DNA of 21,886 nt from DATDCY01 sp031406795 [NCBI: Candidatus Rokuibacteriota bacterium] (lineage in GTDB: Bacteria; JAUVQV01): the NCBI GenBank assembly GCA_031406795.1, contig JANOHV010000234.1:1-21886 (forward strand). Direction: 5' to 3'. A program made the translations under genes and the position numbers. Numbering within the stretch: position 1 is the first letter of the stretch; each line of letters begins with the position of its first letter. The notes under the pieces are model-generated. The model was not told the origin of the DNA and ran no database searches. It worked only from the letters and a program-made list of their open reading frames with translations. Below are positions 17,211 through 21,886 of this stretch, in pieces.

Positions 17211-18329
17211 ATGAAGCGGGTGCTGCTCCCGGTATGCCTGGTCGTCACCCTGGTCGCCATTCTGGAGATCCTCGCCAGCTGCTACTATTTTCTCGTCGTC
17301 CCGCCTTTGAGCCGCGACATGCTCGAACCGCTGATCGGAATCGCCAGCGCGGAGCGCCTTGACCTGCTGCGCTATCAGCCGCACCCGTATTTCAACTACG
17401 TCTTCAACCGGGACTACCGGTATCCGGATGGATTCAAGCCCTACAACTCCCGCGGCTTCCGCGCTCCCGAGTGGACGAAGAAACAGCCGGGGACCGTCAG
17501 GATCGTCGCCGTCGGCGGCAGCACGACCTACGGCATCTTCTCGCGGGACGGGAAGCACACCTGGCCGGTCTTACTCGCGAGCCGCCTGAACGCCCGCGGC
17601 GCCCCCGCGGTGGAGATCGTCAATCTCGGCGTGACCGGGTACACGCTCCCCGAGATCATGGGCGTCGTCGCGCTGACGGTGCCCGAGCTGGAACCGGACG
17701 TCGTGCTGATCAACGCCGGCGTCAACGACGCGTTCGCCGCGTGCTATCCGGACGAAGGGGGAGCGGACGGCACGCTCTTCCGCTTCCCGTGGAGCCCCCG
17801 GCAGCTCCCCGACATCGCCAAGCGCGGGATGCGCAGGAGCTACACGCTGAGAGTCCTGGGGTATCTGACGATGTCTCTGAACGACTATCTCCCCGGCGAC
17901 CTGATGACCGCCATGCAGTACACCCGCCCGGACGACGAGGAAGCCCGGCGCAACGCGGCGCAGGCCTCCGGGAAATACTTCCGGAGAAACCTCGCGACCG
18001 TCGTGTCGCAGGCCGGGGCCACCGGCGCCGCCGTGGTGCTGTTCACGCAGCCGCTCAACCAGGCCTGGGAGACGGTGGAGTCGCCCTTTTATCAGGGGGT
18101 CATCAGCGCGCACCGGCGAATCAACGAGATCATCCGGGAACTCGGGAAGGCGGCCGGCGTCGCCGTGGTCGACCTCGGCGCGCAGGTGCGGGCACCGACG
18201 CTCTTCGTGGACGCCATCCACGCGAGCCTCCGCGGGGAGGAGCTGCAAGCGCAGCTGATCGAGCCGACGGTCGCCGCGATCGTCGACGGCCTGCGAAGCC
18301 GCCCTGGACCCGGCGCGGCCCGGCCGTAG
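17211..18329 (+). CDS. Membrane-anchored SGNH/GDSL hydrolase-like protein
   Basis: Predicted 372-residue protein with one N-terminal hydrophobic segment (about 3-30) that acts as an uncleaved anchor or signal peptide, and a periplasmic SGNH-fold domain. Block I is VAVGGSTTYG with nucleophile Ser104, block II NLGVTGYT (Gly140), block III INAGVNDAF (Asn172) and block V FVDAIHAS (Asp about 334, His about 337), so all catalytic positions look present. Related anchored SGNH proteins act as esterases or O-acyl transferases on envelope polysaccharides. The substrate here is unknown. It starts 8 nt after lptD, which suggests an envelope role and shared transcription. No strong Shine-Dalgarno is visible, consistent with translational coupling to lptD. 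Confidence 0.82.
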   Translation: MKRVLLPVCLVVTLVAILEILASCYYFLVVPPLSRDMLEPLIGIASAERLDLLRYQPHPYFNYVFNRDYRYPDGFKPYNSRGFRAPEWTKKQPGTVRIVAVGGSTTYGIFSRDGKHTWPVLLASRLNARGAPAVEIVNLGVTGYTLPEIMGVVALTVPELEPDVVLINAGVNDAFAACYPDEGGADGTLFRFPWSPRQLPDIAKRGMRRSYTLRVLGYLTMSLNDYLPGDLMTAMQYTRPDDEEARRNAAQASGKYFRRNLATVVSQAGATGAAVVLFTQPLNQAWETVESPFYQGVISAHRRINEIIRELGKAAGVAVVDLGAQVRAPTLFVDAIHASLRGEELQAQLIEPTVAAIVDGLRSRPGPGAARP

Positions 18330-18350
18330 CCCGCCGCGAAGGCGCGACCC

Positions 18351-18623
18351 GTGGCGAACCCCGCGCCCCCGGCCGAGCGTCGGCCGACCCGCGCGGGCGG
18401 CGCGGCGGCGTTCGTCGGCATCCCCCTGGCGCTGGTCGCGCTGGTGTACGCGCCGCTGCTGGCGGCCGACTTGCTGCTGCGCGCGGTGCCGGTCCCCGCG
18501 GGCAACCACCTCGTGGCGCTCGCGTACGCCCCCCCGGGACTCGCGGCCGGCGCGCTGATTGCGCTGCTCGGGCTCGGCGTCCTAGTCGGACTCGCGGTGC
18601 GTCGACCGTCCAGCGACCGGTGA
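18351..18623 (+). CDS. Small hypothetical membrane protein with two predicted TM segments
   Basis: A 90-residue open frame starting at GTG with GAAGG about 8 nt upstream, 21 nt after the SGNH gene. A basic, Pro-rich N-terminus (about 1-17) is followed by hydrophobic helices at about 18-45 (AAFVGIPLALVALVYAPLLAADLLL) and 58-83 (ALAYAPPGLAAGALIALLGLGV, split by a PP kink), and a short charged tail RRPSSDR. No family is recognised. Position and spacing suggest the last gene of the lptD operon. Because GC-rich DNA gives many chance ORFs, it could be spurious, but the signal, spacing and two-helix topology favour a real gene. Confidence 0.5.
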   Translation: MANPAPPAERRPTRAGGAAAFVGIPLALVALVYAPLLAADLLLRAVPVPAGNHLVALAYAPPGLAAGALIALLGLGVLVGLAVRRPSSDR

Positions 18624-18665
18624 TGGGGCGTTGTGGGGCGGGGCCGGGTGAGGCAGCTGGGGGGA

Positions 18666-18725
18666 AAAGCCGGGAATGACAATAATTGTCATTCCGACTG
18701 ACCAGAATCGTCAGTTTCCGGCTTT
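18666..18725. promoter_or_regulatory. Tandem TGAC-N7-GTCA dyads, likely activator-binding (UAS) region of the pilin promoter
   Basis: The 275-bp gap before the pilins holds two dyads of the same design. The first, at 18677-18691, is the core of a perfect palindrome with arms GAATGACAAT and ATTGTCATTC around one A (18674-18694). The second is ACTGAC-N7-GTCAGT at 18697-18715. Their centres are 22 bp apart, two DNA turns. Perfect 8-bp arms AAAGCCGG (18666-18673) and CCGGCTTT (18718-18725) enclose both, so the strand could fold into a three-way junction. Two more GTCA half-sites occur at 18758-18761 and 18764-18767. The distance to the -24 element (about 120-150 bp) is normal for sigma-54 enhancer-binding sites such as those of PilR. 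The activator is not identified; a structured RNA or dispersed repeat is the alternative. Confidence 0.5.
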
Positions 18726-18829
18726 CCGGCTCTGATGTGGCTGTCCGCCGGATCGGCGTCATCGTCAAATGTTGCGATATATCCAATAAACACCGCCTCT
18801 TTTCGCTGTCGGCGGCGATACACCGGTGA

Positions 18830-18846
18830 TTGGCACGGAAAGTGCT
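18830..18846 (+). promoter_or_regulatory. Sigma-54 (RpoN) -24/-12 promoter of the pilin operon
   Basis: The sequence TTGGCACGGAAAGTGCT matches the RpoN consensus YTGGCACGRNNNTTGCW at 16 of 17 positions (G instead of T at the first base of the -12 TTGC). The invariant GG (18832-18833) and GC (18844-18845) have the required 10-bp gap between them. Transcription would start near 18857, about 40 nt before the pilA start. RpoN/PilR control of pilin genes is established in several proteobacteria. Confidence 0.8.
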
Positions 18847-18885
18847 TTAACTATTCGCAAAGGGTGCAAACCCGCAACAACAAAT

Positions 18886-18890
18886 GGAGG
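18886..18890 (+). promoter_or_regulatory. Ribosome-binding site deciding the pilA start
   Basis: GGAGG at 18886-18890 lies 8 nt before the ATG at 18899. An in-frame ATG at 18884 overlaps this site and has no purine-rich sequence of its own upstream, so initiation at 18899 is preferred. This gives a normal 10-residue prepilin leader. Confidence 0.7.
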
Positions 18891-18898
18891 GTAGGAAA

Positions 18899-19369
18899 AT
18901 GTTACAGCGGATTCGGAACCGGAAAGGCTTCACCCTGGTCGAGCTGATGATCGTCGTCGCCATCATCGGTATCCTGGCGGCCATCGCCATCCCGAACTTC
19001 CTGCAGTTCCGCCTCAAGGCCAAGACCTCCGAGGCCAAGTCGAACCTCGGCGCCATCCGCAGCACGGAAGTGGCGTACTTCGCCGAGTGGAATTTCTACG
19101 TTGGCAGTCAGACCCCGACGCCCGTCGCCGACCGCTCGGGAAGCGCCGCCAAGGTTGCTTGGGATACGACGACCCGCTTCTCCCTGCTCGGTTTCGCTCC
19201 CGAGGGGTCCGTGTTCTATTCCTATTCCCTTGAGTCCACCCTCTCTTACCCGTCCACCGCCGGGCTGACCATGAATGCCATCGGCGACCTTGATGCCGAC
19301 AGCTCGCTCAGCTCCTTCTACGTCACCGATTCCACCAACGAAATTCTCAAGAAGGGCGGCACGTTCTAG
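18899..19369 (+). CDS. pilA: Type IV major prepilin-like protein
   Basis: Predicted 156-residue prepilin with a 10-residue basic leader MLQRIRNRKG, PilD cleavage before Phe, Glu at mature position 5, and the hydrophobic N-terminal helix FTLVELMIVVAIIGILAAIA that forms the pilus core. The mature protein is about 146 residues. The globular part contains TRFSLLGFAPEG and a GDLDADSSLSSFYVTD segment with Asp-rich spacing that may bind a metal. Cysteines are absent, so there is no D-loop disulfide. The start at 18899 is supported by GGAGG. It is preceded by a sigma-54 promoter and followed, 47 nt after its stop, by a strong terminator. A paralogue with the same body blocks is encoded next. Confidence 0.93.
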   Translation: MLQRIRNRKGFTLVELMIVVAIIGILAAIAIPNFLQFRLKAKTSEAKSNLGAIRSTEVAYFAEWNFYVGSQTPTPVADRSGSAAKVAWDTTTRFSLLGFAPEGSVFYSYSLESTLSYPSTAGLTMNAIGDLDADSSLSSFYVTDSTNEILKKGGTF

Positions 19370-19403
19370 GATCGCGCCCGACATCTCGCCGGCTGGATCG
19401 CAG

Positions 19404-19904
19404 ATGTCAACAGTTGCAGGGGGCCCCAGGAAGTTCAGGGGCCCCCTGGTTTTTTTTTCGGGGAACGCGGGGTTCACGCTCGTCGAGTTGATGATCGCCG
19501 TCGCGATCGTCGGCATCCTGGTGATGGTCGCCGTCCCGAACTTCATGCGGATGCGCGAACGGGCGAAAATCTCCGAGGCCAAGGCCAATCTGGGCGCCAT
19601 CCGCGTGACCGAGCACGCCTATTTTTCCGAGTACAACCGCTATGTCGGTAACCAGCCTTTGACCCCCGATCGGACCGCCAACCCGTCCGGCCGTTTCCCC
19701 TGGTCGCCGGCCACCCGCTTTTCCCTGCTGGGGTTCGTGCCCGACGGCACGGTCTTCTTCAGCTACGGCCTCTCCGGGGTCGATGCGCCGACCGACACGT
19801 TCACCGCCCTGGCGGTCTCCGATCTCGACGGCGACGGCTTGTGGTCGAGCTGGCACCTGACCGGGGGTGACAAAGAGATGTACCACGAAGGCGCAGACAT
19901 CTGA
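19404..19904 (+). CDS. Second type IV pilin-like protein, paralogue of the upstream pilin
   Basis: Predicted 166-residue prepilin. The mature part begins FTLVELMIAVAIVGILVMVAVPNF with Glu5 and shares the blocks of the upstream pilin: SEAKANLGAIRVTEHAYFSEYNRYVGN versus its SEAKSNLGAIRSTEVAYFAEWNFYVGS-type region (shown in part), TRFSLLGFVPDG and SDLDGDGLWSSW. The duplication is therefore tandem. The leader is unusual: 23 residues (MSTVAGGPRKFRGPLVFFSG then NAG) instead of about 10, and its codons are the terminator hairpin and T-tract. ATG 19404 is the only standard in-frame start between the upstream pilin stop and the cleavage site; the frame is open further upstream into pilA. GGA about 6-7 nt upstream is a weak ribosome-binding site. 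Expression probably depends on read-through of the terminator. Confidence 0.88.
   Translation: MSTVAGGPRKFRGPLVFFSGNAGFTLVELMIAVAIVGILVMVAVPNFMRMRERAKISEAKANLGAIRVTEHAYFSEYNRYVGNQPLTPDRTANPSGRFPWSPATRFSLLGFVPDGTVFFSYGLSGVDAPTDTFTALAVSDLDGDGLWSSWHLTGGDKEMYHEGADI
19417..19458 (+). terminator. Intrinsic terminator inside the second pilin's leader codons
   Basis: A perfect 11-bp stem, CAGGGGGCCCC (19417-19427) with GGGGCCCCCTG (19438-19448), closes a 10-nt loop and is followed by G and nine T residues (19450-19458). This is a strong Rho-independent terminator for pilA. It lies 13 nt inside the second pilin ORF, so a ribosome translating that ORF would melt the hairpin. This is the geometry of an attenuator. 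Confidence 0.85.
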
Positions 19905-21886
19905 TCGGGGCTGACCGGAACCCGGCGCTGGCCGGCTGGTGGCTGGCCGCCGCGCTCCTGCTGCTGCCCCCTCTCGTCCAGGGGGGTACCCCCCGGCTGC
20001 CCGCCGCGGTCGTCAATCTCGGCATCCTCGCGCTGGTGGTGTACTGGGCCGGCACCTGGGCGCGCCTGCCCCGGCGCGAGCTGCGTCTGAACGCGCTCGA
20101 TGCGCTGCTCGGGCTGCTCGTCTTCTGGTCGCTCTTCTCCACACTCTTCGCTCCCTACTATCATGCGGCCGAGTCGGCGTTCCTCGCCATTGCCTGCTAC
20201 GTCGCGCTGTACGCCTACCTGTCGTTCAACCCGAGCTTCGCCGGGCTCTCGCTCGCCCTCGGCGCGGTCCGGGCGCAGGCGGTCTTCCAGTCGCTCCTCG
20301 TGGTCGGCGCGGCGGTCGGCTTCGGCCAGGACCGCCCCGCGGGGACTTTCTTCAACCCGAATTTTCTGGCCGGCTTCCTCGCCGCGGCGCTGCTGCTGCT
20401 CGTCGGCGGCCAGGTCTTCCCCGCGCCCGGGGAACGCCGCCGCCCGCTGCGCGCGGTTCTGGCCCTCGCCGAAGGGGCGCTGCTCCTCGCCGCCCTGTTG
20501 ACCACCGGTTCGCGCGGCGGCGCCCTCGCGCTGGGCGCCGGGCTGCTGGTGCTGCTCGCGCTGCGCTCCTGGCGGGTCGCCGCTGCCGCTTTCTCGGTGG
20601 CGCTCGTCGCACTGCTGGCGATCCCGAACCCGCTGCTGCAGCGGCTGCAGTCGCTGCCGCAGACGGACAACTTCGCCTTCACGCGGCTGGCCATCTGGAA
20701 GAGCGCGCTCGCGATGATGCTCGACCACCCCTGGGTCGGTATCGGACTCGGCCAGTACGAATACATCTCGACCCGCTACGCCTTCCCGATCGAGACCCAC
20801 TGGGCCAGGTATTCCCGCGTCGCCGAGAACGCCCACTCGGAATACCTGCAGGCCGGCGCCGAGCTGGGGATTCCCGGGCTCCTGCTCGCCCTCGGCGCGG
20901 TCGCCCTGCTTGCCTGCGCCGGCGTCCGGCGGCTGCGGACGCTGCCGCGCGCCTCGTGGGGGCCGGTCGCGACGCTGCTGGCCGCGGTGGTGTCGATCGC
21001 GGTCCAGGCCGTTGTCGACTTCCCGCTGCAGACGCCGCCCACGGCGCTGCTGCTGGTGCTGCTGGCCGCCGGGTTGCGCCTGCACGGCGCCACCGGAGCG
21101 GAGTACGTCATCGGCTTTCGCGTGCGCCGCGTCTACGCCGTGTCCGCAGCTCTGGTCGCGCTGGTGCTCGCCGTCGCCACGGTGCGGCCCGTCGTCGGCT
21201 TCTGGTACTTCCTCGGCGGCATCGGCGCCCCGCGCAACCTGCTCAACGAGAAGTGGGCGCTCGAGCTGGCGCCGCGCGCCGCGCCGCCGCTCGCGGAGTC
21301 CGCGCGGCTGGTCGGGCTGGCCGCGCGCATCGACTTCACCAATGCGCCCTATCGGCGCGCCCTCGGCAGCATGCTCTTTCAATCCTACCTGCGCGGGGAA
21401 GGGGGGGGCGACTCCCTGAAACAGGCGCTGTATCACCTCAATTACGCGGCCGAGCTCAATCCCAACCAGTTCCAGTACTCGCTGAACCTCGGCCAGGCGA
21501 TGACCTCGCTCGCGCGGCTCGAGCCGCCGGGACGCCAGCGGCTCGAGGCGGCGCTCGGCCATCTGCGTCACGCGGCGGAGTTGGCGCCGTTCCAGCTCAG
21601 CGTCTGGACCGAGATCGGCCTGCTCTCCGACGAACTGGGGGATCTCGCCGCGGCCGAGGCGGCCTTCCGCCGCGCCGTCGCGATCGAGGAGTACTTCCTG
21701 CGCGGCTGGTTCAATCTCGGCACGCTCTACGCCCGGCACGGGATGCTCGCCCCGGCGCGGGAGGCCTTCGAGCGCGGCCGCGCGCTCGCGGAAAAGGCCC
21801 AGTCGCTCGTGCCGACCACGAAGATGGAAATCGAGTTGCTTGCCATCAAGCCGGCGGTTTTCTACAACGAACGCTGCACGCCGGCC
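19901..21886 (+). CDS. O-antigen ligase/PglL-family membrane protein with TPRs (partial, runs off the window)
   Basis: An open frame of at least 660 residues continues to the window end without a stop. The N-terminal 400 residues hold about ten hydrophobic segments and Wzy_C/O-antigen-ligase signatures: GTFFNPNFLAGFLA, LLTTGSRGGALA, ARYSRVAENAHSEYLQAGAE with the key His at about residue 312, and VVDFPLQTPPTA. The C-terminal 200 residues contain TPRs (for example HLNYAAELNPNQFQYSLNLG, FNLGTLYARHGMLAPAREAF). Family members ligate lipid-linked glycans to lipid A or, as PglL/PilO-type enzymes, to pilins. No ATG, GTG or TTG occurs in frame between the upstream stop (19868) and GTG 20036, which would delete the first membrane helix. 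A CTG at 19901, overlapping the pilin stop as CTGA with GAAGG 9 nt upstream, is the best full-length start. The start is therefore uncertain; the gene is not. Confidence 0.85.
   Translation, partial: MIGADRNPALAGWWLAAALLLLPPLVQGGTPRLPAAVVNLGILALVVYWAGTWARLPRRELRLNALDALLGLLVFWSLFSTLFAPYYHAAESAFLAIACYVALYAYLSFNPSFAGLSLALGAVRAQAVFQSLLVVGAAVGFGQDRPAGTFFNPNFLAGFLAAALLLLVGGQVFPAPGERRRPLRAVLALAEGALLLAALLTTGSRGGALALGAGLLVLLALRSWRVAAAAFSVALVALLAIPNPLLQRLQSLPQTDNFAFTRLAIWKSALAMMLDHPWVGIGLGQYEYISTRYAFPIETHWARYSRVAENAHSEYLQAGAELGIPGLLLALGAVALLACAGVRRLRTLPRASWGPVATLLAAVVSIAVQAVVDFPLQTPPTALLLVLLAAGLRLHGATGAEYVIGFRVRRVYAVSAALVALVLAVATVRPVVGFWYFLGGIGAPRNLLNEKWALELAPRAAPPLAESARLVGLAARIDFTNAPYRRALGSMLFQSYLRGEGGGDSLKQALYHLNYAAELNPNQFQYSLNLGQAMTSLARLEPPGRQRLEAALGHLRHAAELAPFQLSVWTEIGLLSDELGDLAAAEAAFRRAVAIEEYFLRGWFNLGTLYARHGMLAPAREAFERGRALAEKAQSLVPTTKMEIELLAIKPAVFYNERCTPA

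What the first reader, a model, noticed from the sequence alone, without database searches (positions are those of the whole stretch)
19404..19470. Terminator-attenuator embedded in the leader-peptide codons of the second pilin
A perfect 11-bp GC-rich hairpin plus nine T lies inside the coding sequence of the second pilin, 13 nt after its ATG. Transcription would mostly stop after pilA, giving a high ratio of major to second pilin. Translation starting at 19404 would disrupt the hairpin, so second-pilin translation could promote its own transcription and that of the ligase. The price is a 23-residue leader with PLVFF from the T-tract, unlike the short basic leader of the first pilin. An attenuator written into a prepilin signal sequence is, to my knowledge, not described.
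Basis: partly seen in the sequence, partly recalled or inferred. Interest (0 to 1): 0.72.

Follow-up and report, generated by a model that had tools for sequence, protein, structure and literature searches.

The report
Terminator between two tandem pilin genes
A strong stop signal for copying DNA into RNA sits just after a bacterial pilus gene and runs into the first codons of a second pilus gene, so the second gene is probably made only in small amounts; such stop signals after a main pilus gene are already known.

Summary
19417-19448 is a perfect 11-bp GC-rich stem with a 10-nt loop, then one G and nine T (19450-19458); no comparable element arose in 200 shuffles. The only in-frame ATG, GTG or TTG between the pilA stop and the second pilin's mature start is ATG 19404, so the T-tract is read as second-pilin codons whether ATG 19404 or CTG 19446 starts it. 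Best reading: pilA's intrinsic terminator, 47 nt after its stop; the second pilin and a Wzy_C ligase beyond it are probably expressed by low read-through, as in Pseudomonas pilin-accessory cassettes. Folding gave only a weak competing pairing. No related tandem-pilin locus could be reached, so conservation and covariation are untested, and a silent second pilin remains possible.

The parts
18831..18846 (+). sigma-54-type (-24/-12) promoter candidate of pilA, TGGCACGGAAAGTGCT
   Evidence: 1 mismatch to the recalled consensus TGGCACG-N4-TTGCW; the other 17 matches in the window have 3. The total of 18 matches is below chance (30 expected), so only the 1-mismatch site is of note.
18899..19369 (+). 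pilA: first (probably major) type IV pilin, leader MLQRIRNRKG, stop TAG 19367-19369
   Evidence: Pfam N_methyl E 1.8e-10 on 18902-19366; strong Shine-Dalgarno match, -11.0 kcal/mol
19380..19408 (+). 7-bp inverted repeat GACATCT / AGATGTC whose 3' arm holds ATG 19404
   Evidence: weak: 219 of 3,000 random 47-nt stretches of the window hold such a repeat, and the fold of 19370-19458 prefers another pairing
19404..19472 (+). presumed leader codons of the second pilin (MSTVAGGPRKFRGPLVFFSGNAG); ATG 19404 is the only canonical in-frame start after the pilA stop
   Evidence: codon usage at the 0.2 percentile of in-frame windows
19417..19448 (+). terminator hairpin, 11 bp perfect, loop 10
19446..19448 (+). 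CTG, the only near-cognate alternative start downstream of 19404, inside the hairpin's 3' arm
   Evidence: its duplex with the recalled anti-SD, -7.7 kcal/mol, is better than that of ATG 19404, but it is buried in the stem
19450..19458 (+). T9 tract (terminator U-tract), read within V-F-F-S codons in the second-pilin frame
19473..19904 (+). mature part of the second type IV pilin (FTLVELMIAVAIVG...), stop TGA 19902-19904
   Evidence: Pfam N_methyl E 1.6e-7; 77 of 145 columns (53%) identical to pilA; dN 0.25, dS 0.91 over the first 65 codons; GC3 0.88
19901..21886 (+). O-antigen ligase / pilin oligosaccharyltransferase-like gene (Wzy_C + TPR), cut by the window end; no canonical start before GTG 20036, CTG 19901 overlaps the pilin stop

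Best explanation
The hairpin and T9 form the Rho-independent terminator that ends the pilA transcript (probably sigma-54-driven) 47 nt after the pilA stop codon. A minor fraction of polymerases reads through and transcribes the second pilin and the Wzy_C ligase, which sets an excess of first pilin over second pilin and ligase. The second pilin's 5' end has been laid over the terminator: its T-tract, and the hairpin too if ATG 19404 is used, is read as leader codons. This overlap is most likely a consequence of close packing of the two tandem genes rather than a sensor. Shown: the sequence elements and the gene order. Inferred: that it terminates, the read-through, the stoichiometry, the promoter and the start codon.
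For: Perfect 11-bp stem plus T9, beyond all 200 shuffles; score 22.3 on a d'Aubenton-Carafa-type formula recalled from memory, where above 0 is terminator-like. Spacer from the pilA stop to the stem is 47 nt; in the E. coli tR2 constructs distances above about 27-30 nt gave maximal termination, because the upstream ribosome cannot then shield the stem (PMC4824070 passages). One good sigma-54 match lies before pilA and none of the 18 loose matches lies between pilA and the second pilin; no sigma-70-like site in 17500-21886. A transcript started upstream of 19417 must cross the terminator to encode the second pilin. The same arrangement, pilin then Rho-independent terminator then accessory gene, is described as attenuating the downstream gene in P. 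aeruginosa and is cited there for three further species (PMC11841053, introduction read; terminator passages). The second pilin has been under protein-level constraint (dN 0.25, dS 0.91 against pilA).
Against: No transcript data. No tandem-pilin relative was found, so conservation is untested. No canonical start lies beyond the terminator for the second pilin, which is odd for an expressed gene, and the ligase also lacks a canonical start. A terminator this strong may leave very little read-through.
Confidence: 0.7

Rival explanations
1. Translation-coupled self-attenuator: ribosomes starting at ATG 19404 invade the stem and let polymerase continue, so second-pilin translation promotes its own transcription and that of the ligase.
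For: ATG 19404 is in frame and 13 nt before the stem; it is mostly free in one of five folded lengths (19390-19475). Translation over a terminator does raise pilus transcription in S. gallolyticus pil1 (PMC3894217, section 13 read). Folded up to 19430, the 5' arm can pair weakly with sequence upstream.
Against: In E. coli a terminator 30 bp after an AUG lost only about 10% of its efficiency to translation (PMC4824070 section 12). Weak Shine-Dalgarno match; of five folded lengths the ATG is mostly paired in three, mixed in one and mostly free in one. Codons unlike coding sequence. The terminator stem is in the best fold of each stretch holding both arms: three, one, and 19404-19460 and 19370-19460 among those. 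Co-transcriptional folding was not modelled.
Confidence: 0.07
2. The hairpin simply ends pilA; the second pilin is silent or in decay, having lost its start codon, or serves only as a recombination donor for pilA.
For: No canonical start after the terminator and a poorly supported one before it; the ligase also lacks a canonical start.
Against: Second-pilin mature codons have normal usage (GC3 0.88; frame score 0.66 against -0.23 and -0.77 in the other frames) and dN is well below dS, though recent loss would not show there. Longest DNA run shared with pilA is only 13 bases, so ongoing gene conversion is unlikely.
Confidence: 0.17
3. The T9 tract is a phase-variation or polymerase-slippage tract: a change in T number moves the second pilin in or out of frame.
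For: Longest T or A run in the window, in the 5' part of a surface-protein gene; TTG 19414 lies in the +1 frame.
Against: T9 directly after a perfect 11-bp GC stem is fully explained as a terminator; no population data were available.
Confidence: 0.04

Closest known systems
pilin-accessory cassettes of Pseudomonas aeruginosa, pilA with tfpO/tfpW/tfpX/tfpY/tfpZ (PMC11841053: introduction and terminator passages seen)
   Same: Pilin gene, then a Rho-independent terminator, then an accessory gene (TfpO and TfpW are glycosyltransferases) proposed to be attenuated by it; U-stretch mutations were used there to raise TfpY.
   Different: Here a second, paralogous pilin comes directly after the terminator, and the U-tract lies in its reading frame; the ligase gene is third.
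S. gallolyticus pil1 attenuation (PMC3894217: abstract, outline and section 13 seen)
   Same: Terminator upstream of pilus genes; translation across it raises transcription.
   Different: There a separate leader peptide ends 39 bp before, within or beyond the terminator according to repeat number, and mutants were tested; here there is no separate leader peptide, and the frame is the pilin itself.
Terminator inside the first 100 bp of an ORF, E. coli tR2 construct W48 (PMC4824070: section 12 read, other passages seen)
   Same: Gene, then an AUG, then a terminator shortly after the AUG, then a further gene.
pap operon papA-papH hairpin (recalled, not looked up)
   Same: Hairpin after a major pilin gene lowers expression of the next subunit gene.
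   Different: Chaperone-usher pili; hairpin in the intercistronic gap.

Membership tests
Rho-independent (intrinsic) terminator | GC-rich stem-loop | tested here: met
   11 bp perfect, -27.5 kcal/mol
Rho-independent (intrinsic) terminator | U-tract directly after the stem | tested here: met
   T9 one base after the stem; 0 of 200 shuffles comparable
Rho-independent (intrinsic) terminator | RNA 3' ends at the U-tract | not testable with these tools
   no transcript data
Pilin-accessory cassette with attenuating terminator | order pilin, terminator, accessory or glycosylation gene on one strand | tested here: met
   pilA, hairpin, second pilin, Wzy_C; a second pilin stands between terminator and ligase
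Pilin-accessory cassette with attenuating terminator | co-transcription by read-through at low level | not testable with these tools
   no RNA data
Pilin-accessory cassette with attenuating terminator | accessory protein acts on the pilin | not tested
   Wzy_C domain found, which fits a ligase; substrate unknown
Ribosome-mediated (leader-peptide) attenuator | separate leader ORF ending near the terminator | tested here: not met
   the frame from 19404 runs on into the second pilin to TGA 19902-19904
Ribosome-mediated (leader-peptide) attenuator | well-placed ribosome start before the stem | tested here: inconclusive
   ATG present, weak SD -3.5 kcal/mol, but folC (-3.2), tpr (-2.1) and dnaj (-2.6) are no better
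Ribosome-mediated (leader-peptide) attenuator | mutually exclusive antiterminator fold | tested here: inconclusive
   only a weak pairing of the 5' arm with upstream sequence when folded to 19430; with both arms present the terminator stem wins; co-transcriptional folding not modelled
Ribosome-mediated (leader-peptide) attenuator | stem conserved by compensatory change in relatives | not testable with these tools
   no homologous tandem-pilin locus reached
Riboswitch / known RNA family | match to an Rfam model | tested here: not met
   two weak matches, both far below gathering score, in 18600-19600

The most novel reading that the evidence does not exclude
The second pilin is a real, expressed gene whose prepilin leader is encoded by a functional terminator. 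Every mRNA able to make it must first escape a terminator built from its own signal-peptide codons, and translation or a pause between 19404 and 19417 tunes that escape. Selection would then keep one stretch as terminator and as prepilin leader at once.
Probability: 0.12. Interest if true: 0.6.

Novelty: new member of a known kind. Interest (0 to 1): 0.3.

Why it matters
If read-through is confirmed, it adds another case in which a terminator after the pilin gene sets the ratio of pilin to downstream proteins, here including a second pilin. The overlap of U-tract and leader codons makes it a clean test of how far a ribosome can influence a terminator at the very start of a gene.

Tried and rejected
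Comparative evidence: the second pilin and an alignment of the two pilins without their N-termini were scanned in genome contigs; 136 and 70 pattern matches, none confirmed. Viral contigs: 0 of 61 pattern matches confirmed, and 16 of 76. A motif scan of these 16 loci shows prepilin-like proteins unlike this pair; L016 and L017 carry two prepilin motifs about 1 kb apart and L008 carries three, none resembling these pilins beyond the N-terminus. The hairpin as a DNA pattern gave one viral contig, L019, inside a collagen-like protein ORF, taken as chance. Plasmids: pilA-region DNA gave 11 records with matches covering 6-11% of the query at its pilA N-terminal part; pilA protein gave no match, perhaps because low-complexity filtering masks the hydrophobic N-terminus; LptD gave 35 remote records, under 60% identity, not followed. 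Solved structures: 21 sequences match pilA, the best named Geopilin domain 1 protein; this did not fix the organism.

Riboswitch or other Rfam family: rejected. An upstream hairpin 19380-19408 as a designed ATG lock: not relied on; such repeats occur in 219 of 3,000 random stretches and the fold of 19370-19458 prefers another pairing. A separate promoter for the second pilin: none found by consensus, which does not exclude one. Structure model of the second pilin: one long helix then strands, as in pilins, but mean pLDDT 53.7 from a two-row alignment, too low to use; no fold search was run.

Rows left out or changed: codon totals leave out the second pilin and one kinase gene; shortens two kinase genes (start region of one, overlap of the other) and includes the rest. 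One search also showed a kinase gene whose first 23 codons as listed score as badly as the pilin leader (-1.28 against -1.25); I read that as a misplaced start. In one search the leader's own frame (-0.43) does not stand out from the other two frames of the same stretch (-0.84 and -0.27). Of 10 paper searches, 4 returned no paper: type IV pilin + intrinsic terminator + readthrough + pilA, prepilin + transcription terminator + leader sequence + hairpin, pilin gene + Rho-independent terminator + Eikenella, two pilin genes + tandem + terminator + type IV. None of the titles and abstract starts listed by the other six describes a terminator written into a prepilin leader; they cover only the open-licence library. 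Passages only were seen of PMC5174107, PMC10971746 and PMC7815308.

Full report
What is there. The window (69% G+C) carries, on the + strand, an lptD-like gene, a GDSL-type hydrolase, a small ORF without Pfam match, and then pilA (ATG 18899, stop 19367-19369), a second pilin (mature start 19473, stop 19902-19904) and a Wzy_C ligase gene cut by the window end. Both pilins match Pfam N_methyl and are identical at 77 of 145 columns. Over the first 65 mature codons dN is 0.25 and dS 0.91, so the protein has been constrained since the two split. A 1-mismatch sigma-54-type promoter lies at 18831-18846 before pilA; none of the other 17 loose matches (3 mismatches) lies between the two pilins.

The element. 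19417-19448 is a perfect 11-bp stem with a 10-nt loop, then G and T9. Among the three T runs of 6 or more on the + strand, only this one follows a long stem: 11 bp, against 3 and 4 for the others; the - strand has no such run. In 200 dinucleotide shuffles of the window none gave a T run of 6 or more after a perfect stem of 8 or more. The 89-nt stretch 19370-19458 folds better than shuffles (z -2.76, 3 of 200 as good). By sequence it is an intrinsic-terminator signal. A looser scan of 17500-21886 finds 4 terminator-like sites against 2.6 expected, so only the length of stem and T-tract makes this one stand out.

Whose leader is it? Between the pilA stop and the mature second pilin the only in-frame ATG, GTG or TTG is ATG 19404; the only near-cognate codons looked for and found are ATC 19371, ATC 19383 and CTG 19446. 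No start lies after the T-tract. But openness of the frame is weak evidence: the frame is open back to 19275, just after a stop at 19272, and the other two frames have no stop in this stretch either. 15% of 20,000 random 34-codon stretches offer an open ATG by chance. The leader codons score -1.25 on a log codon-usage index, at the 0.2 percentile of 1,243 in-frame 23-codon windows and typical of out-of-frame ones. The hairpin and T-tract force part of that, but codons 2-5 lie outside them and are all rare and A/T-ending, a pattern in 0 of 6,388 in-frame four-codon windows of 14 genes. The five codons after the T-tract are ordinary. ATG 19404 has a weak Shine-Dalgarno match, -3.5 kcal/mol against -11.0 for pilA, though three other genes here score no better; CTG 19446 scores -7.7 but lies in the stem. 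Of five folded lengths, the ATG is mostly paired in three, mixed in one (19370-19449) and mostly free in one (19390-19475).

Mechanism. The spacer from the pilA stop to the stem is 47 nt. In the E. coli tR2 constructs termination is maximal beyond about 27-30 nt, because the upstream ribosome then cannot shield the stem (PMC4824070 passages). In the same work a terminator 30 bp after an AUG kept most of its efficiency, losing about 10% to translation, and the authors argue that a ribosome is unlikely to catch the polymerase within the first 100 bp unless there is a pause (section 12). The same section notes that ribosomes starting just before a terminator run onto non-stop RNA and lower the upstream gene's output. 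By inference, an efficient ATG 19404 would harm pilA mRNA, which fits a weak start. Folding gave only a weak pairing of the 5' arm with upstream sequence (19370-19430) and the terminator stem whenever both arms were present; co-transcriptional folding was not modelled. No Rfam family reached its gathering score. The simplest mechanism is a pilA terminator with limited read-through into the second pilin and ligase. P. aeruginosa pilin-accessory cassettes are described this way, and terminators after the pilin gene are cited for three further species (PMC11841053). In S. gallolyticus, translation across a terminator does control pilus genes, but through a separate leader peptide already being translated (PMC3894217). 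Putative terminators inside coding regions are said to be numerous (PMC4824070 introduction passage), so the overlap alone is not unheard of.

What is not settled. No relative of this pilin pair could be reached in the collections open to me and no genome is held for the window, so neither conservation of the stem nor the start codon could be tested, and the organism is unknown. The second pilin could be silent. The ligase, too, has no canonical start before GTG 20036; CTG 19901, overlapping the pilin stop, is the best candidate. Two neighbouring genes without a clear start may mean unusual starts in this organism, or decay.

Verdict. Observation confirmed; terminator reading supported by sequence; self-promoting attenuator unlikely on present evidence. 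The kind is known (terminator after a pilin gene, read-through to the next gene); the overlap with the next pilin's leader codons is the unusual point.

Noticed in passing
18831-18846: Sigma-54-type promoter candidate before pilA with one mismatch to the recalled consensus.
   Followed up: partly
18673-18695 and about 18700-18714: Perfect 11-bp palindromic repeat GGAATGACAAT-A-ATTGTCATTCC and, by eye, a second TGAC...GTCA element, about 120-160 bp before the sigma-54 site; they look like enhancer-binding-protein sites.
   Followed up: no
18666-18676 and 18715-18725: Imperfect inverted repeat AAAGCCGGGAA / TTTCCGGCTTT enclosing those palindromes; could be a terminator or operator.
   Followed up: no
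19901: The Wzy_C ligase frame has no ATG, GTG or TTG until GTG 20036; CTG 19901 overlaps the second pilin's TGA stop, with GAAGG upstream.
   Followed up: partly
19450-19458: T9 in a reading frame could cause polymerase slippage or phase variation; TTG 19414 is in the +1 frame.
   Followed up: no
L019:2697-6164: Viral-contig ORF with collagen-like Gly-Pro repeats that matches the hairpin pattern, taken as chance.
   Followed up: yes
1725-1761: Perfect 13-bp inverted repeat with an 11-nt loop upstream of the gene starting at 1843; no T-tract.
   Followed up: no
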